A stretch of 64,000 bases of DNA from Candidatus Methanoplasma termitum (GTDB lineage Archaea; Thermoplasmatota; Thermoplasmata; Methanomassiliicoccales; Methanomethylophilaceae): contig NZ_CP010070.1 in assembly GCF_000800805.1 (NCBI RefSeq), forward strand, positions 1,364,001 through 1,428,000, in the 5' to 3' direction. Below are positions 2,816 to 10,933 of this stretch, one piece after another. Positions within the stretch are counted from its first letter, which is position 1; each line of letters starts with the position of its first letter. The translations under genes and the position numbers were made by a program. The notes under the pieces were generated by a model. That model saw only the letters and a program-made list of their open reading frames with translations. It was not told the origin of the DNA and ran no database searches.

Positions 2816-3301
2816 TCAGATCTTTTTCTTGTAAATGTGGAATATGATGTCAGACCTGGACAGGATACCCACCAGAATACCTTGTTCCAGTACCGGCAGG
2901 CGATTGACGTTGAGCTTCATCATCTTTTGAAGGGCACGGGAGATCACCTCATCCGGTGCTGTGCAGAGGACCGTTCTTATCATTATGTCCTCGACCTTCA
3001 TCTCGGAGATCTCTTTATTCGCTTCCACCAAGGCCGGATCGGCAACGTCACCGTCCATGGGAACGCTCAGAAGGGACTGAGTGGTGCTCGGGTCTTTGTC
3101 CAACTTGTCCTGATACCTTATTATGAGGCTGAGAACATCGAACTCGGTTATCATTCCAATGACATGGTTCCTGTTGTCCACTACCGCTGCGCCGGTCACA
3201 TTATCGACTGCAAGCTTGATTATGGCACGTTTAACTGTATCCGTCGGTTTGACGGTCAGCACCTGTGTGGTCATTAGATCCCTAACCCTTAATTCCTTCA
3301 T
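2816..3301 (-). CDS. Two-CBS-domain protein
   Basis: A 161-residue protein made of two CBS domains, one at the N-terminus (VRDLMTTQVLTVKPTDTVKRA) and one covering the last ~60 residues (VEDIMIRTVLCTAPDEVISRA). Such pairs bind adenine nucleotides or SAM and act as sensors; no effector domain is attached. A TTG at 3325 would add eight residues, but a TATA-like stretch near 3325-3332 lies about 25 nt before the ATG at 3301, which suggests a leaderless mRNA starting at that ATG. The MBL gene follows after 5 nt, so the two likely form an operon. Confidence 0.85.
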   Translation of the reverse strand: MKELRVRDLMTTQVLTVKPTDTVKRAIIKLAVDNVTGAAVVDNRNHVIGMITEFDVLSLIIRYQDKLDKDPSTTQSLLSVPMDGDVADPALVEANKEISEMKVEDIMIRTVLCTAPDEVISRALQKMMKLNVNRLPVLEQGILVGILSRSDIIFHIYKKKI

Positions 3302-3415
3302 TGATTCGTAATATAACCTCGACAATATATGAGTTTGTATACGCTGATTGCCGTACCCCCTGAATAAATAAAAACAGACAGTTTTATCTACAATAATGTA
3401 ATCAAGAGGCTCACG

Positions 3416-3489
3416 GGGCCTGTAGCTCAGCTAGGTAGAGCGATCGACTCTTAATCGATCGGCCAAGGGTTCGAATCCCTTCAGGCCCG
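3416..3489 (+). tRNA. tRNA-Lys (CTT)
   Basis: A 74-nt cloverleaf. The acceptor stem GGGCCTG pairs with CAGGCCC and the discriminator is G. The anticodon loop CTCTTAA gives anticodon CTT. The T-arm GGGTTCGAATCCC is standard. CCA is not encoded. Its 3' end is the apparent target of repeated insertions downstream (imperfect copies at 5031, 5242 and 6301). A possible TATA box TTTTATCT lies about 35 nt upstream. Confidence 0.95.
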
Positions 3490-3492
3490 CTT
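3473..3492 (+). repeat. att-like core at the tRNA-Lys 3' end (reference copy)
   Basis: The last bases of the tRNA plus three bases of flank form a 20-nt segment that recurs imperfectly at 5031-5050 (18/20), in part at 5242-5254, and more loosely at 6301-6319 (15/19). A tRNA 3' end duplicated downstream in the same orientation is the usual footprint of site-specific integration. Confidence 0.6.
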
Positions 3493-3516
3493 TTACAAAA
3501 TCTTGTTTTTTCTGCA

Positions 3517-4779
3517 TTAGTCTTTTAAGCACCCTATCGGCACGACGTGTATCCCGTCCTTGCGTGTGTATGCATATTCTGTGGCTGTTACAACGGCCAG
3601 AAATGATGGTGAACCCATCGTCTCGCTCTCGACCTTTTCTTTTATTTTCAGAAGGTTGTTCGCCGCGTCTTCGATCATTCCGGCTCCGAGCTTGACTTCA
3701 ACCGCCCCCCACTTTCCGTTATGAAGATGAATTATTGCATCCGCTTCCAGCCCGTTGCGGTCGTGATAATGTAACACTTCGCCTCCCAGCGAACTTGCGT
3801 AGACCCTCAGATCCCTAATGACAAGTGATTCGAAAAGAAGTCCGAATGTTCTCGGATCGTTCATCAGGTCTCTCGCCGATGCGCCTAAAAAATATGCTGC
3901 AATGGCCGGATCCGTGAGATGTCTGGTGTCTGTCACTCTGATTGTTGTTCTGGAACGCAGATTCGGCGTCCATGCTGGCAGGTCATCTATGACGTGTATC
4001 TTTCTCAGAGCCTTTTCGTATGACCTCAGAGTATTGATGTGAACCGCCCCTTTATCCTTTTTTTGTAGGTCTGCCACAATAGTCGTATCCGTTGCCGATG
4101 TGGATATGTTCCTTGAAATCGACCTCAGCACCAGACGCATCTTGTCCCGGTCACGTTCCACTCCGTCTGCTGTCTTGACTTCCGATCCGAGTATGGTCTC
4201 GCAGTAACCTTTTATCTGATTATGTGCAACGGATGGGCTTTTTCCGACCGAATTCGGCCATCCTCCCCTTGTGATCCGTTCAGCAATATCCTCTAAGGAA
4301 AGACGAGAGATACCGGACACTTCTTTCCCCAAGAACATTTCCGATAGGGAAACTTCTCCTGTGGAATCACCCGATTCAAAAAGACTCATCGTATACATAC
4401 GCATCCTGCTGATCCTTCCAGCGCCGGAGTGCATTATCTTCGACTCGTCGATAGTGACGGACCCTGTCAATATATACAGGCCCTCCTCAGACAGCTTATC
4501 CACACTGAACCTCACCGCATCCCAGATGTTAGTTTCATCCTGCCACTCATCGATCAGTCTCGGTTTTTCCCCGTCCAAAAGCTGAGAAGGTTTGACGGCG
4601 GCCATCAGTTTGTATGTTTCTTTTTTATCAGGATCTTGCATATAGACGGCACTCTTTGCGACCTGCTCGGCGGTCGTGGTCTTGCCACAATATTTCGGCC
4701 CAACAATAGATACGGCACCGAATGCTTCCAACATATCTCTCAGCTGCCGATCCGCTATTCTAGGCCTGTAGTCTTTCAT
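3517..4779 (-). CDS. AAA-type ATPase with C-terminal DUF4143/PD-(D/E)XK-like region
   Basis: A 420-residue P-loop ATPase. Walker A is G27-PKYC-G32-K33-T34 and the Walker B region is PRLIDEWQ. The C-terminal part has the DUF4143 hallmark FGLLFESLVIRDLRVYA followed by GLEADAIIHLHNGKWGAVEV, a restriction-nuclease-like D...E-x-K pattern. The family is common in archaea and its role is unresolved. The frame could extend to 4956, but that part is translated tandem repeat. The ATG at 4779 has a TATA box (TTATATAT) about 26 nt upstream, so a leaderless start is chosen. It sits between tRNA-Lys and a copy of the tRNA's 3' end. Confidence 0.85.
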   Translation of the reverse strand: MKDYRPRIADRQLRDMLEAFGAVSIVGPKYCGKTTTAEQVAKSAVYMQDPDKKETYKLMAAVKPSQLLDGEKPRLIDEWQDETNIWDAVRFSVDKLSEEGLYILTGSVTIDESKIMHSGAGRISRMRMYTMSLFESGDSTGEVSLSEMFLGKEVSGISRLSLEDIAERITRGGWPNSVGKSPSVAHNQIKGYCETILGSEVKTADGVERDRDKMRLVLRSISRNISTSATDTTIVADLQKKDKGAVHINTLRSYEKALRKIHVIDDLPAWTPNLRSRTTIRVTDTRHLTDPAIAAYFLGASARDLMNDPRTFGLLFESLVIRDLRVYASSLGGEVLHYHDRNGLEADAIIHLHNGKWGAVEVKLGAGMIEDAANNLLKIKEKVESETMGSPSFLAVVTATEYAYTRKDGIHVVPIGCLKD

Positions 4780-4802
4780 ATATCTGTCATTAATATCCAG
4801 AC

Positions 4803-4812
4803 ATATATAATT
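4803..4812 (-). promoter_or_regulatory. TATA box of the first ATPase gene
   Basis: TTATATAT on the minus strand, centred about 26 nt before the ATG at 4779, fits a leaderless archaeal promoter. It lies directly next to the 23-bp repeat array, which would place the array just upstream of the core promoter. Confidence 0.5.
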
Positions 4813-4815
4813 ATT

Positions 4816-4942
4816 GTAATTGACAATGTTTTGTTGTTGTAATTGACAATGTTTTGTTGTTGTAATTGACAATGTTTTGTTGTTGTAATTGACAATGTTT
4901 TGTTGTTGTAATTGACAATGTTTTGTTGTTGTAATTGACAAT
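4816..4942. repeat. Five and a half tandem 23-bp direct repeats (iteron-like or operator array)
   Basis: Five perfect head-to-tail copies of a 23-bp unit beginning GTAATTGACAATG and ending TTGTTGTT start at 4816, 4839, 4862, 4885 and 4908; a sixth stops after 12 bases. Each unit carries TTGT-N5-ACAA, an imperfect dyad. There are no spacers, so it is not CRISPR. The array abuts the promoter of the ATPase gene. Either an operator for autoregulation or plasmid-type replication iterons would fit. Confidence 0.9.
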
Positions 4943-5030
4943 AAAATATTATGCATTTTGAAAATATTTTCTGACTGCGGAATGTGTATCCAATTAATGT
5001 TTAGTTGACTCCAAAATGGAGTCGAAGGTC

Positions 5031-5050
5031 AAATCCCTTCAGGCTCGCTT
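5031..5050 (+). repeat. Copy of the tRNA-Lys 3' end (att-like)
   Basis: This matches 18 of 20 bases of 3473-3492, with an unbroken AATCCCTTCAGGC core. The rest of a tRNA is absent, so this is a 3' fragment. With the intact tRNA it brackets the first ATPase gene and its repeat array, as expected for attL/attR of an integrated element. Confidence 0.65.
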
Positions 5051-5297
5051 GTCGACCACCAAAGATCATTTCATTTCGATTTCAAAAAGAAGCACCGCAG
5101 CAGACAAAGGATAATGCTCTACTCCCCTCCACTCAACAAATATTTTGCCAATAGTAATTATTACTATTTTTTCCCACGAATAATGTGTCAAACTCACCAA
5201 TAAAAGCGCAGCCTCAACTCCACCAGATTCTATACTGTACTAAATCCCTTCTGGCGAATTAACACAAAACGTTCCGCCTATATTTTGACATATTTCG
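5051..5297. other. Non-coding stretch with a palindrome and a second tRNA-end remnant
   Basis: No convincing gene is seen. It holds ATAGTAAT-T-ATTACTAT at 5151-5167, a perfect 8+1+8 inverted repeat followed by a T-run (operator or terminator), and at 5242-5254 AATCCCTTCTGGC, which matches 12 of 13 bases of the tRNA-Lys 3' core. The T-run orientation would suit termination on the plus strand, but no plus-strand gene ends here. Confidence 0.5.
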
Positions 5298-6263
5298 TCA
5301 CTCAAGACGGCTTAACAGCCTGATACATAGGAATGAAAGATACGGCGACACAGTTTTCTTTTGCCCAAAGTCCCAATCCTTACATTTCTGATATACGGAT
5401 TCCGGAATGAACAATCCGTCCGGATCTTGTTTGCTTTTTATGATCTCGATCATTTCACAGAACCTTGTATCCTTCCTCGCACACTCGAACTTACTGAGAC
5501 AGTCTGTGACGCTCACGATGTCATACCACATGGCGGGAGCTTTCAGTTTTCTGAAATCCGTGCCTGTGTAGAACATGTACGGATGTCTTTCGAGACTGTT
5601 CTCCCAAAGGGACAGAATAGCATCTATCCCTCTTTTTGCGACATCGCTTTTTCTGTATTCATCGATCTCTGCGTAAAGATTCAGCATCGAAAGCGTTGCA
5701 AAGGGGCAGCAGTCTCCTTTCCGTCCGGGTCCTCTGAATGAGCCGTGCTCTTCGGAGACCGAACAGGGGAACCCTTGTTCGTTGATCAGTGTCGTTAAAT
5801 GATCGACCCCCTGTTTTACATGCTCTCTGTAGTCGATTTTGGCGAGGAGAAGCGCACGGAGCAGCAAAGGTGCGTCGCACAAGCACCATCCGAACACATC
5901 CTCGCCCTTTCCGCCGTAATGTTTAGGGATGTTGGTCTTGGACTTATAAACTCCAAATTTATCCTTGTGGCTCATTATCTGTTTCACTGCGTTCTCTATT
6001 TCCGTGATCTCTGTGTTGAAGCCATTGTCGAGTAGGAACAGAAGCTGATTTATCGGGAGATCGGGCGCTTTGTGATTGCTTACCAGTATACCATGAAAGT
6101 CTGAAACGCCTTTGAGGTACGCTCGGATCCTCTTGTCTCTCAGTGCTTCACTTTTCAGTTCTGATAACATCTTTTTATCTTCATTCAGAAGATTATGTCT
6201 TATTGAGAATTGAAGCCACGGCTCACTTACAGATAGAAGCTTTTCCGTCCTGAGATCGCCCAT
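5298..6263 (-). CDS. Alpha/alpha-toroid (prenyltransferase/squalene-cyclase-like) protein
   Basis: A 321-residue, probably cytoplasmic protein. It has spaced motifs resembling the helical-toroid repeats of prenyltransferases and terpene cyclases: DVFGWCLCDAPLLLRALLLA, INEQGFPCSV, GPGRKGDCCPFATLSMLNLY, MWYDIVSVTDCLS and KQDPDGLFIPESV. Conserved Cys and His could bind a metal, but no cyclase DXDD is seen, so enzymatic activity is doubtful. A TATA-like stretch near 6283-6295 fits a leaderless ATG at 6263. It sits in the tRNA-Lys accessory zone between tRNA-end remnants. Confidence 0.7.
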   Translation of the reverse strand: MGDLRTEKLLSVSEPWLQFSIRHNLLNEDKKMLSELKSEALRDKRIRAYLKGVSDFHGILVSNHKAPDLPINQLLFLLDNGFNTEITEIENAVKQIMSHKDKFGVYKSKTNIPKHYGGKGEDVFGWCLCDAPLLLRALLLAKIDYREHVKQGVDHLTTLINEQGFPCSVSEEHGSFRGPGRKGDCCPFATLSMLNLYAEIDEYRKSDVAKRGIDAILSLWENSLERHPYMFYTGTDFRKLKAPAMWYDIVSVTDCLSKFECARKDTRFCEMIEIIKSKQDPDGLFIPESVYQKCKDWDFGQKKTVSPYLSFLCIRLLSRLE

Positions 6264-6300
6264 GTGATTATGTACCGTTTGTAACTATAAAAATATGGTA

Positions 6301-6319
6301 AGTCCCTTCGATCCCGCTT
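6301..6319 (+). repeat. Divergent copy of the tRNA-Lys 3' end
   Basis: This matches 15 of 19 bases of the tRNA-Lys end: TCCCTTC and CCCGCTT are conserved and the middle differs. It lies between the toroid gene and the second ATPase gene and, like the copy at 5031, is followed by TTGT or GT. It may be an older attachment-site scar. Confidence 0.4.
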
Positions 6320-6365: not shown

Positions 6366-7553
6366 TTATTTGCTAAGCAGCCAATCTATGATGTTCACAC
6401 GCTGTATCCCATTATAAGTTCCGAGACCTACCCGGTCCATTGTCAGGATCACTCTTGCGTTCCCGTCATTCATTCCTGCCAGCGGCCTGGTCTCCCTTTT
6501 TTCTATGTTCTCATCCAGAACAGTCATGGATACCTGGTAATACTCCCTTTGTCCGCCTTTGTCCGCAACAAAATCGATCTCTGCATCGCCAAGCTTTCCG
6601 ACCTGTACGTTATATCCCCTTCTGAGAAGTTCCAGGAAGACCAGATTCTCTATGGATCGACCAATGTCCCGGGAATATTCACCTATTGAAGCGTTCCTCA
6701 TTCCCATATCCGTGCAGTAATATTTTGACGGTGTCGTCAGAATCATCTTTCCGCGCATATCATATCGTTTCGCCTGATAGAACATCAGAGCCTCGCATAT
6801 CGCCTCCAGATAACTCTCAGCGGTTTTGTTGTCTATTCTCAGCTGCTTTGAAATGGAGTTCCCTGATATCGGGTTGCCTATCTCAGAAAAAAGATAATCA
6901 ATGACCCTCCGAAGCGTTGACACGTCGGTCATTTTCTTTCTAACAGAGATATCGTTGACCATTATGTCCGAACGTATTGCGCCGAGGATGTCGAATGCGT
7001 CTTCTCCGGACATACTTTTCCTTATGATCGGCATAGAACCTATCGAAAGGTAGTCATTGAATGCACTCTCGTCATCTTTGAGAGCATTCAGTTCTTTGAA
7101 CTCTTTAAATGAAAGAGGAAGCATATTGATCGAGACCGACCTTCCTGTCAAATGTGTAGCCAGCTCAACCGACAGCAGACGTGCGTTCGATCCGGTGAGA
7201 TAGATGTCCGCGTCTGTATCGACCAGCAGAGAGTCGATCACTCTCTCCCATCCGGTCACGTTCTGTATCTCATCCAAAAGGAAATAGCTTCTTTCAACAG
7301 ACACCTTTGACATCAGATGTTCATACAGCGTGTCCGCATCGAGAAGATGTTCGTTGGTCTTCGAGTTGAGATCTATGTTGTGTATGCTCTCTTTACTGAC
7401 ACCATTCTTGACAAGAAGATCTCTGTATTGGCGCATAAGCGTCGATTTTCCGCACCTTCTCATCCCCGTGATTATTTTTACAAGGTCGACCTGATCCTTA
7501 TACCTTGATAATTTTTCCAGATAGTCGCTGCGGATGACGATATCTTTTGCCAT
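6366..7553 (-). CDS. AAA-type ATPase with DUF4143 domain
   Basis: A 395-residue P-loop ATPase. Walker A is G30-MRRC-G35-K36-S37 and Walker B FLLDEIQ spans 91-97. The sensor-like YLTGSNARLLS precedes an HTH-like region (SGNSISKQLRIDNKTAESYL) and the DUF4143 C-terminus ENLVFLELLRRGYNVQVG, whose nuclease-like motif is reduced to AEIDF...YYQV. An ATG at 7565 is in frame, but the TATA box near 7575-7583 sits about 26 nt before the ATG at 7553, which favours that start. Two TAGGA palindromes lie just upstream. It differs from the ATPase at 3517 and was probably gained separately. Confidence 0.87.
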   Translation of the reverse strand: MAKDIVIRSDYLEKLSRYKDQVDLVKIITGMRRCGKSTLMRQYRDLLVKNGVSKESIHNIDLNSKTNEHLLDADTLYEHLMSKVSVERSYFLLDEIQNVTGWERVIDSLLVDTDADIYLTGSNARLLSVELATHLTGRSVSINMLPLSFKEFKELNALKDDESAFNDYLSIGSMPIIRKSMSGEDAFDILGAIRSDIMVNDISVRKKMTDVSTLRRVIDYLFSEIGNPISGNSISKQLRIDNKTAESYLEAICEALMFYQAKRYDMRGKMILTTPSKYYCTDMGMRNASIGEYSRDIGRSIENLVFLELLRRGYNVQVGKLGDAEIDFVADKGGQREYYQVSMTVLDENIEKRETRPLAGMNDGNARVILTMDRVGLGTYNGIQRVNIIDWLLSK

Positions 7554-7585
7554 AGTTGGAGACATGCTTTCAATGATATAAATAT

Positions 7586-7601
7586 TAGGATATCTTTCCT
7601 A
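7586..7601. promoter_or_regulatory. Palindromic operator-like site 1 upstream of the second ATPase
   Basis: TAGGATATCTTTCCTA is an inverted repeat (TAGGA...TCCTA) directly upstream of the TATA box. A near-identical site follows 39 bp away, centre to centre, at 7625-7640. The position suits a transcription factor acting on the ATPase promoter. Confidence 0.6.
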
Positions 7602-7624
7602 AAAGTTTTAAAAAATGAAAAAGA

Positions 7625-7640
7625 TAGGAAATGTTTCCTA
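7625..7640. promoter_or_regulatory. Palindromic operator-like site 2 upstream of the second ATPase
   Basis: TAGGAAATGTTTCCTA has perfect TAGGAAA/TTTCCTA arms around a 2-nt centre. Its 39-bp spacing from site 1 is close to four helical turns, so two dimers would bind the same face of the DNA. Confidence 0.6.
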
Positions 7641-7711
7641 AAAATTTCATTTTTATCAGAATAGGGCCCCGCTTTCTAAAAAATATTATAGATAAGAGCG
7701 GATGACAACCT

Positions 7712-8314
7712 GTGGATAATCACCCGGACCTTGAGACCGATGAGGGACGGCGAGCCCGAATCTATCCTATCATATTGAGTGAGTACGATCCTAAATGGTC
7801 GCAATGGTACGCCGAAGAAAGGACGCGGCTGATCAGCTTGATCGGTGGCGAAAATATCATCCGAATTACACATATCGGAAGCACATCCGTCCCGGGAATG
7901 ACGGCAAAGCCAACGGTGGATATTTTGTTGGAGGTCGCCGAAAGTGTTGATATTGAAGATCTGATCGCCGCTTTGCCGGTGCATGAGTATATCTGCCTTC
8001 GGCAACAGACGATCCCAACTGTTGACCGCGTTATTTTCCTGAAAGGATATGCCAATACTGGCTTCTCTGAAAGAGTGTTCCACATCCATGTGAGAAACCC
8101 CGGCGATTGGGATGAGTTGTATTTCCGTGATTATTTGGCAGCCCGCCCCGACATCGCCTCCGAATACGCTGCTTTGAAGCGAAGATTACTCAATGCTTAT
8201 GAACATGACCGCGACGGATATACGACAGCAAAGGGGGAGTTTGTAAAAGAACATACAAACAGAGCCAGAGAGGAAGCGAAAAGCATCATTAAAGAAGAAA
8301 GTAGACCGCCTTAA
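7712..8314 (+). CDS. GrpB/UPF0157 family nucleotidyltransferase-like protein
   Basis: A 200-residue protein of the GrpB family, which has a nucleotidyltransferase-like fold and no well-defined substrate. The signature HIGSTSVPG (54-62) is followed by KPTVDILLEV with Asp70, and later VFHIHVRN and LYFRDYLAARPD, all typical. The GTG at 7712 lies about 25 nt after a TATA-like AATATTATAG, so a leaderless start is plausible. Such proteins are more common in bacteria, so transfer is possible. Confidence 0.88.
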   Translation: MDNHPDLETDEGRRARIYPIILSEYDPKWSQWYAEERTRLISLIGGENIIRITHIGSTSVPGMTAKPTVDILLEVAESVDIEDLIAALPVHEYICLRQQTIPTVDRVIFLKGYANTGFSERVFHIHVRNPGDWDELYFRDYLAARPDIASEYAALKRRLLNAYEHDRDGYTTAKGEFVKEHTNRAREEAKSIIKEESRPP

Positions 8315-8326
8315 GCTAACTTACTC

Positions 8327-8522
8327 TCAACTCCTCACTTTTATCTCAAATGATGCCTTTATTCCTGTATTCACATACGACCGGAGTGTGCATGTCTGGG
8401 TCAACAATTTTCCCTGATCGTCAACGGTCTGATCTCTTATATCTGCTTTTCATTGGGGTTACTGCCGCGATGATGATCAAGGTGACCGCCACAATGATAA
8501 CAACCCTTACTGCCAGTGTCAT
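8327..8522 (-). pseudogene. Possible small membrane protein gene broken by one frameshift
   Basis: From the ATG at 8522 the frame encodes a membrane segment (VRVVIIVAVTLIIIAAV) and soon stops. Removing one A from the AAAA run after PM lets the reading continue in a protein-like frame (DQTVDDQGKLLTQTCTLRSY...EIKVRS) to TGA at 8327, giving about 64 residues. A TATA-like AAATATATG lies about 40 nt upstream. The protein is not recognised. The alternatives are a decayed gene, a sequencing error, or chance. Confidence 0.35.
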
Positions 8523-8760
8523 AATGTGCACTTCAACATAATGAGTGTTTTATCTTAACATATATTTTTCGACCTATCTATCGCGATCGTATCACTAAAA
8601 TCTCCGGCCAGACATACGATCCTTAACATATCTGGCACTCCGTCGGATGCTGTTAATATAGGTCAACAAACCTTAAATATCCACTCTCTGATGAGATTGC
8701 GTTAATACGAGCTATACAAATTATTTTGACAGTGACGTAATGCTTCAGGAGGAACAGACC

Positions 8761-9900: not shown

Positions 9901-9961
9901 CAAAAACACATACGCAACTGGCTAATACGCTTTGGTAAGTGGAAAAATTGAAGTGGGCATC

Positions 9962-10933
9962 ATGATAAACATTGCGATAATCGGGTTTGGTATAGTCGGT
10001 TCCGCCTCATATGAACTTGCGGTTAAGAACGCTAAGTTGATCAGGGAACGTGTAGGCGATTCGGTCAAAGTTAAAAAAATAGTAGATATACTCGACTTTC
10101 CTAATCACCCTGCACCGGAACTTTTGAGTAAGAACTTTGACGATGTTATGAATGACCCCACGATATCGATCGTTATCGAAACGATCGGCGGAGTGCGGGC
10201 CGCCTACGAGTTTACAAAACGTGCGCTGGCAGGCGGCAAAAGCGTTGTAACAAGCAACAAAGAGCTTGTTGCGACGCACGGCGTGGAACTTACGGACCTC
10301 GCGAAGAAGAACAACGTCCACTACCTTTTCGAGGCCAGCGTCGGCGGCGGTGTCCCCATAATCCGCCCGCTCAAACAATGCTTGGCCGCTAACGAATTTG
10401 AAGAGATATACGGCATACTTAACGGAACCACCAACTATATCCTCACAATGATGCGTGAGGAAGGGAAATCCTTTGAAGAAGCTCTTAAGGAAGCACAAGC
10501 CAAAGGCTACGCCGAGAACGACCCCACCGCTGATATCGAAGGTTATGATACAGGCAGAAAAATAGCCATTTTGGCCTGGACCGTTTCCGGACAGCTTGTC
10601 CCTATTGAAAAGATCGACAGGAAAGGGATCTCGAATATCACCGTTGAGGACATTAAAAAAGCAAAAGCCGCCGGTAAAGTGATCAAATTGATCGGCAGGG
10701 CCAAGTTCACTGGCGGAAAGGTCCGCTGCACGGTCGCACCCGAAGTCATACCTCTGAACGATCCGATGGCCATTGCCGACGATGTTTACAACGCCATTGC
10801 CGTCAGAGGCAACTTTATCGGCGACGTGATGTTCTACGGGCCGGGTGCCGGCGGGGCAGCGACCGCCAGCGCGGTCATGGGCGATGTCATCGAGATCGCC
10901 AGGATCACAGCCGCACACAGCAAGAACAAGTGA
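9962..10933 (+). CDS. hom: Homoserine dehydrogenase
   Basis: A 323-residue enzyme that reduces aspartate semialdehyde to homoserine with NAD(P)H for threonine and methionine synthesis. The Rossmann motif GFGIVG is at 8-13. Next come VVTSNKELVA, FEASVGGGVPIIRPL and ILNGTTNYILT, and the catalytic/substrate segment ENDPTADIEGYDTGRKIAIL. It ends after the catalytic domain without an ACT domain, so allosteric threonine control is not expected. A TTG at 9932 would add ten residues; the ATG begins directly at the Rossmann strand and is preferred. No other threonine genes are adjacent. Confidence 0.93.
   Translation: MINIAIIGFGIVGSASYELAVKNAKLIRERVGDSVKVKKIVDILDFPNHPAPELLSKNFDDVMNDPTISIVIETIGGVRAAYEFTKRALAGGKSVVTSNKELVATHGVELTDLAKKNNVHYLFEASVGGGVPIIRPLKQCLAANEFEEIYGILNGTTNYILTMMREEGKSFEEALKEAQAKGYAENDPTADIEGYDTGRKIAILAWTVSGQLVPIEKIDRKGISNITVEDIKKAKAAGKVIKLIGRAKFTGGKVRCTVAPEVIPLNDPMAIADDVYNAIAVRGNFIGDVMFYGPGAGGAATASAVMGDVIEIARITAAHSKNK

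What the first reader, a model, noticed from the sequence alone, without database searches (positions are those of the whole stretch)
3416..6319. tRNA-Lys(CTT) is an integration hotspot with several attachment-site-like scars
The tRNA 3' end (3473-3492) recurs at 5031-5050 (18/20), 5242-5254 (12/13) and 6301-6319 (15/19), all in the same orientation. The segments between them hold one DUF4143-type ATPase with a repeat array, a non-coding stretch, and a toroid gene. This looks like successive insertions of very small elements without any integrase gene.
Basis: partly seen in the sequence, partly recalled or inferred. Interest (0 to 1): 0.68.

Follow-up and report, generated by a model that had tools for sequence, protein, structure and literature searches.

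The report
Single-gene cassettes stacked behind tRNA genes
In a gut methanogen and its relatives, small inserts of mostly one gene each (many of them candidate virus-defence genes) are stacked in tandem behind tRNA genes, each bounded by a copy of the tRNA's tail, although this genome has no detectable integrase of the usual kind that could have put them there.

Summary
Of three proposed scars, 5029-5050 is certain. 5243-5255 and 6301-6319 are each near chance (P about 0.06 and 0.20, jointly about 0.01); 5243-5255 is rescued because it sits where a decayed unit should end. Congeneric genomes show that tRNA-Lys(CTT) is a genuine hotspot: one has tRNA-[Fic]-att-[DUF4143]-att-[DUF4143]-att-hom with clear att copies; others carry different small inserts. 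In the window's own genome (1,488,669 bp, consistent with Ca. Methanoplasma termitum), a survey of 44 tRNAs found such scars also at tRNA-Arg(CCT), tRNA-Gly(TCC) and tRNA-Arg(TCG), the first two with single ATPase-gene units. No tyrosine recombinase was detected in this genome, but two relatives have one beside the same tRNA or beside an att copy. Best explanation: 0.9-2 kb integrase-less units inserted successively at tRNA 3' ends by an integrase acting in trans, older units decaying. Closest known kind: tandem att-bounded islands lacking an integration module (CIME-like; Dehalococcoides ssrA islands). Unusual here: one-gene size, defence-candidate cargo, and array form in archaea. The mechanism is inferred, not shown.

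The parts
3416..3490 (+). tRNA-Lys(CTT), intact; the target gene
   Evidence: ARAGORN
3471..3492 (+). tRNA-side copy of the attachment site (tRNA 3' end plus TT)
   Evidence: matched by the downstream copy 5029-5050; extent by inspection
3517..4956 (-). unit 1: AAA_14-DUF4143 ATPase (PADLOC candidate PDC-S01), 3' end facing the tRNA; the ORF reads through the repeats, so the real start is probably near 4779
   Evidence: start codon inferred from the sequence
4814..4942 (.). 5.6 copies of a 23-nt repeat, in the promoter region of unit 1
   Evidence: TRF; the same kind of repeat precedes most other DUF4143 genes of this genome
5029..5050 (+). att copy 1, certain
   Evidence: score 17, 0 of 300 shuffles
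5051..5242 (.). remnant of a deleted DUF4143 unit
   Evidence: both ends align to the ends of one DUF4143 unit of G001
5243..5255 (+). att copy 2, weak; lies at the far end of the remnant
   Evidence: score 10.5, P 0.06 alone; position
5298..6263 (-).
6301..6319 (+). att copy 3, weak
   Evidence: 15/19, P 0.20 alone
6366..7565 (-). second AAA_14-DUF4143 ATPase (PDC-S01) with a 39-nt-period repeat upstream; its far boundary is not defined
9932..10933 (+). homoserine dehydrogenase, right flank shared with G001; about 60 nt before it are conserved in G001 and G005
   Evidence: gene name from its sequence

Best explanation
tRNA-Lys(CTT), and at least two other tRNA genes of this archaeon, are targets where small units of mostly one gene (0.9-2 kb) inserted one after another. 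Each unit brought a piece homologous to the tRNA 3' end, so the tRNA stays intact and a tail copy marks the far end of the unit. The recombination was most likely catalysed in trans by a tyrosine integrase of a passing tRNA-targeting element, of the kind seen at the same tRNA in relatives; the units encode none. Older units are pushed outward and decay. Shown: the certain att copy, the same architecture at other tRNAs and in relatives, the varying cargo, a decayed unit, no tyrosine recombinase detected in this genome, and tyrosine recombinases beside the same tRNA or an att copy in two relatives. Inferred: catalysis in trans, order of insertion, continuing mobility.
For: Certain copy 5029-5050. 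Survey of 44 tRNAs: strong same-strand tail copies at only four, none on the opposite strand except real tRNA genes. Arg(CCT): DUF4143 gene, promoter repeats, then a near-complete 34-nt tail copy. Gly(TCC): AAA_16 ATPase, att, remnant, att. G001: three tandem units with clear att copies before the shared right flank. Units in another genus: G046, G047, G044. The Fic unit of G001 at tRNA-Lys recurs, 70% identical, behind tRNA-Arg(CCG) in G047. Integrase at the same tRNA in G011 and at an att copy in G002. No PF00589 or PF16795 match in the own genome. Unrelated genes (DUF4143, AAA_16, Fic, nucleotidyltransferase, OmdA) occupy the same kind of slot, so the cargo is unlikely to be the enzyme.
Against: No clean empty site; right flanks are rearranged in relatives. 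Two of the three window scars are weak. No circular form or recombination was observed. At least six of the 11 DUF4143 genes of this genome are not near a tRNA in the stretches fetched. Some relatives' inserts are larger (G008, about 4 kb) and most relatives are draft genomes.
Confidence: 0.55

Rival explanations
1. The units are leftovers of larger integrase-bearing elements that each integrated normally and then lost almost everything by deletion (CIME-type decay); they never moved as one-gene units.
For: Integrase-bearing insertions exist at the same tRNA in G011 and at an att copy in G002. Deletion within units is seen: the 5051-5242 remnant, the remnant at tRNA-Gly, and shortened DUF4143 units in G006 and G011. 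G001 has an integrase fragment near an att copy downstream of tRNA-Gly(TCC).
Against: Repeated independent deletion would have to leave one intact gene with its promoter between two att copies at several tRNAs. The same Fic gene lies between tRNA and att at two different tRNAs in two genera, both without integrase.
Confidence: 0.28
2. The cargo ATPases (AAA plus DUF4143) themselves drive integration, as a minimal one-gene mobile element.
For: ATPase units are the commonest cargo here, DUF4143 genes are amplified to 5-49 copies per genome, and most carry phased repeats upstream.
Against: Units with unrelated genes have the same boundaries; none of 80 relatives from other taxa shows a tRNA with tail copies; most copies in this genome are not at tRNAs.
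Confidence: 0.06
3. Chance resemblance plus ordinary tandem decay of tRNA genes and gene turnover at a tolerant site.
For: Two of the three window matches are within chance range; the Arg(TCG) copy resembles a decayed tandem tRNA.
Against: Strong copies all on the same strand with no opposite-strand equivalents, repeated in relatives with different cargo between them.
Confidence: 0.05

Closest known systems
Dehalococcoides ssrA-specific genomic islands, including those without an integration module (PMC3146451)
   Same: Tandem inserts downstream of an RNA gene, each bounded by a short copy of its 3' end; some lack integration genes and are called possible cis-mobilizable elements
   Different: Those islands are larger, use one target (ssrA) and a serine recombinase present in the same arrays; here units are 0.9-2 kb, use several tRNA genes, and no tyrosine recombinase is detectable in the genome
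Integrated mobile elements of Thaumarchaeota (PMC6563490)
   Same: Archaeal elements at tRNA 3' ends with short att sites
   Different: Those are whole elements with integrases and many genes; the passages read describe no one-gene arrays
PDC-S01 and SoFic defence candidates (PADLOC)
   Same: Cargo proteins match these models
   Different: The match concerns the cargo only, not the integration; activity is untested
Integron gene cassettes (general knowledge)
   Same: Works alike in outline: single genes stacked at one site by site-specific recombination
   Different: No integron integrase or attC site was seen; the boundaries are tRNA tails

Membership tests
CIME-like att-bounded elements without an integrase | Flanked by two related att sites in direct orientation | tested here: met
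   Certain for unit 1 of the window and for the units at Arg(CCT) and Gly(TCC) and in G001; weak for the later window units
CIME-like att-bounded elements without an integrase | No integrase or transfer gene inside | tested here: met
   Window units hold only the listed genes; no PF00589 match in the genome
CIME-like att-bounded elements without an integrase | Mobilised together with, or by, a neighbouring integrase-bearing element | not testable with these tools
   Integrases at the same site in relatives, but no recombination could be observed
tRNA-targeting island with its own tyrosine integrase | Integrase gene within the element next to the att site | tested here: not met
   Absent in the window and its genome; present in G011 and beside an att copy in G002
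PDC-S01 defence candidate (cargo) | Match to the PADLOC model | tested here: met
   E 1.6e-60 and 1.3e-139 for the two window ATPases
PDC-S01 defence candidate (cargo) | Anti-virus activity | not testable with these tools
   Needs an experiment; the PDC label itself is only a candidate
Integron | Integron integrase and attC recombination sites | not tested
   No tyrosine recombinase in the genome, but attC sites were not searched for

The most novel reading that the evidence does not exclude
A tRNA-tail cassette system in Methanomassiliicoccales: single defence or accessory genes circulate between tRNA genes, genomes and genera as 1-2 kb units and are captured in tandem arrays by integrases supplied from outside, working like an integron without an integron platform.
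Probability: 0.25. Interest if true: 0.8.

Novelty: new variant of a known kind. Interest (0 to 1): 0.6.

Why it matters
Islands at tRNA genes are textbook, but they are usually large and carry their own integrase. Stacks of one-gene units bounded by tRNA tails would show how single defence genes can be exchanged between archaea without an element of their own, and would give short, precise markers of such transfers. The arrays in several genomes and two genera make the question testable now, by comparing strains and by assaying the integrases found next to the same tRNA.

Tried and rejected
Whether DUF4143 genes are tRNA-lodged in general: no. At least six of the 11 in this genome have no tRNA within the stretches fetched, and none of 80 relatives from other taxa shows the pattern. 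Empty sites at tRNA-Arg(CCT) and tRNA-Gly(TCC): homology in relatives mostly stops at the tRNA end, but the right flanks have moved or were not found, so no clean empty site. Viral contigs: neither integrase nor the exact 22-nt tail found. SSV-type integrase in the own genome: none. Three serine recombinases exist far from this locus and were not linked to it. A degenerate att at about 7664-7676 was noticed by eye and is not claimed. Only one paper in the library mentions DUF4143. No structure prediction was run, so the 'toroid' fold was not tested. A first upload of this report was malformed and not accepted.

Full report
What was claimed.

Checking the repeats. The tRNA is at 3416-3490. Scanning with the tRNA tail finds 5029-5050 (score 17), 5243-5255 (10.5) and 6303-6319 (9.5) on the + strand. 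In 300 dinucleotide shuffles of the 2.9 kb downstream, 17 was never reached, 10.5 was reached in 6% and 9.5 in 20%; both weak ones together in 1%. So one scar is certain and two are only suggestive. Matches as good as the weak ones occur elsewhere in the first 20 kb.

What the segments are. Unit 1 is an AAA_14-DUF4143 ATPase with a 23-nt tandem repeat in its promoter region; the mechanical ORF reads through these repeats, so the real start is probably near 4779 (inference). The 200-bp 'non-coding stretch' is a deleted DUF4143 unit: its left part aligns to an att copy plus gene end of a unit in relative G001, and its right part to the promoter end of that same unit. The weak scar at 5243-5255 is therefore where that unit should end. 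Then come a 321-aa gene without a Pfam family, the weak scar at 6301-6319, and a second DUF4143 ATPase. The right flank shared with G001 is homoserine dehydrogenase.

Relatives at the same tRNA. The genome is one 1,488,669-bp contig; this and the window GC of 49.2% agree with the reported 1.49 Mb and 49% of Ca. Methanoplasma termitum MpT1 (PMC5011839). The identification is an inference. In most of the 16 congeners the left flank and tRNA are found, and the right side varies. G001 shows tRNA-[Fic]-att-[DUF4143]-att-[DUF4143]-att-hom with clear copies, one of them 59 nt long. G008 has two copies, G009 and G007 one each, and G002 has one next to an integrase gene on another contig. In G007 the copy lies 16 bp before homology with G010 begins. 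G011 has a tyrosine recombinase directly behind the tRNA, pointing at it.

Other tRNAs in the same genome. I examined 5 kb downstream of 44 tRNAs. Strong same-strand tail copies stand out at four: Lys(CTT), Arg(CCT), Gly(TCC) and Arg(TCG); on the opposite strand nothing exceeds 12.5 except genuine tRNA genes. Arg(CCT) is followed by a DUF4143 gene pointing at it, promoter repeats, and a 34-nt tail copy carrying a 3-nt insertion. Gly(TCC) is followed by an AAA_16 ATPase, an att copy, a remnant of about 140 bp and another att copy. The remnant's repeats match sequence in other genomes, in G005 placed where the promoter of a DUF4143 gene would be (position reckoned from the domain hit). Arg(TCG) has only a long decayed tRNA-like copy 262 bp away, with no gene between.

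Beyond the genus. A family-wide search for the tail found extra copies in another genus. There, tRNA-Lys is followed by a 105-aa nucleotidyltransferase in G046 and by a Fic-domain gene plus a 170-aa gene in G047, each group ending in an att copy; in G044 two att copies flank another Fic-domain gene, on a contig without the tRNA. In G047 a Fic protein 70% identical to that of G001 sits behind tRNA-Arg(CCG), with an att copy beyond it. That att differs from the tail of tRNA-Arg(CCG) at 3 of 23 positions, from the G047 tRNA-Lys tail at 2, and from the tRNA-Lys tail of the window's genus at 1 (my count on the sequences). This is what one expects if the unit brought a Lys-type att and crossed over in the shared last nucleotides, but with so few positions it is only suggestive.

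Enzyme. No PF00589 match exists in the window's genome at E<=0.001, while all 14 control genomes ring. No SSV-type integrase was found either (this model rings in only 5 controls). Three serine recombinases lie far away. Six congeners have PF00589 recombinases, including those at tRNA-Lys in G011 and at the att copy in G002. Because unrelated genes fill the same kind of slot, the cargo is unlikely to be the enzyme, and an integrase in trans is the simplest account. This step is inferred.

Cargo. The DUF4143 units match PADLOC's phage-defence candidate PDC-S01, and the Fic unit of G001 matches SoFic. DUF4143 genes are amplified, 5 to 49 per genome. Among 80 relatives from other taxa none is flanked by a tRNA with tail copies, so lodging at tRNAs is a property of these archaeal loci and not of the gene family.

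Comparison with what is known. Tandem islands bounded by copies of an RNA gene's 3' end, some without integration modules, are described for Dehalococcoides ssrA (PMC3146451), where the latter are called possible cis-mobilizable elements. Thaumarchaeal elements also use tRNA 3' ends and short att sites (PMC6563490). The ATPase-plus-nuclease kind of gene has been listed as 'likely involved in defense (or some plasmid gene)' under arCOG03166 (PMC4158269); that the DUF4143 genes here belong to that arCOG was not tested. The case here differs in one-gene size, several tRNA targets, defence-candidate cargo, and absence of a detectable tyrosine recombinase in the genome. I rate it a new variant of a known kind.

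Limits. No clean empty site, no sequencing reads, mostly draft relatives, and weak second and third scars in the window itself.

Noticed in passing
L113 (G000:C1:349000-359000), 4426-5888: tRNA-Arg(CCT) followed by a single DUF4143 ATPase gene, phased promoter repeats and a 34-nt copy of the tRNA tail: the same architecture at a second tRNA of this genome.
   Followed up: yes
L170 (G000:C1:779800-785000), 111-1824: tRNA-Gly(TCC) followed by an AAA_16 ATPase gene, an att copy, a short remnant with repeats and a second att copy.
   Followed up: yes
L168 (G000:C1:18100-28000), about 5040-5100: A long decayed copy of tRNA-Arg(TCG) 262 bp downstream of the intact gene, with no gene between.
   Followed up: partly
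window 4814-4942 and 7578-7660; L109, L112, L113, L114, L115: Most of the 11 DUF4143 genes of this genome have short tandem, often palindromic repeats just upstream with periods of 23, 33, 39-42 or 46 nt, near multiples of a DNA helical turn. They may be operators; unexplained.
   Followed up: partly
genus-wide, G000-G016: DUF4143 ATPase genes occur in 5 to 49 copies per genome, an unusual amplification.
   Followed up: no
G006:C89:13321-13501 and G011:C58:479-591: Shortened DUF4143 units that keep both ends but have lost most of the gene; the one in G006 lies near tRNA-Arg(TCG).
   Followed up: partly
L366 (G047:C66:4000-12000), 3716-5064: A Fic unit at tRNA-Arg(CCG) in another genus whose far att resembles a tRNA-Lys tail more than the tail of its own tRNA.
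   Followed up: partly
L090 (G007:C78), 3194-4025; L093 (G014:C129), 8122-8701: Tyrosine recombinase genes or fragments pointing at the 3' ends of tRNA-Pro(CGG) and tRNA-Ala(CGC): further tRNA-targeting elements in the genus.
   Followed up: no
window 7712-8314: A GrpB-family gene lies in the variable region between the second DUF4143 unit and homoserine dehydrogenase; not at that place in G001.
   Followed up: no
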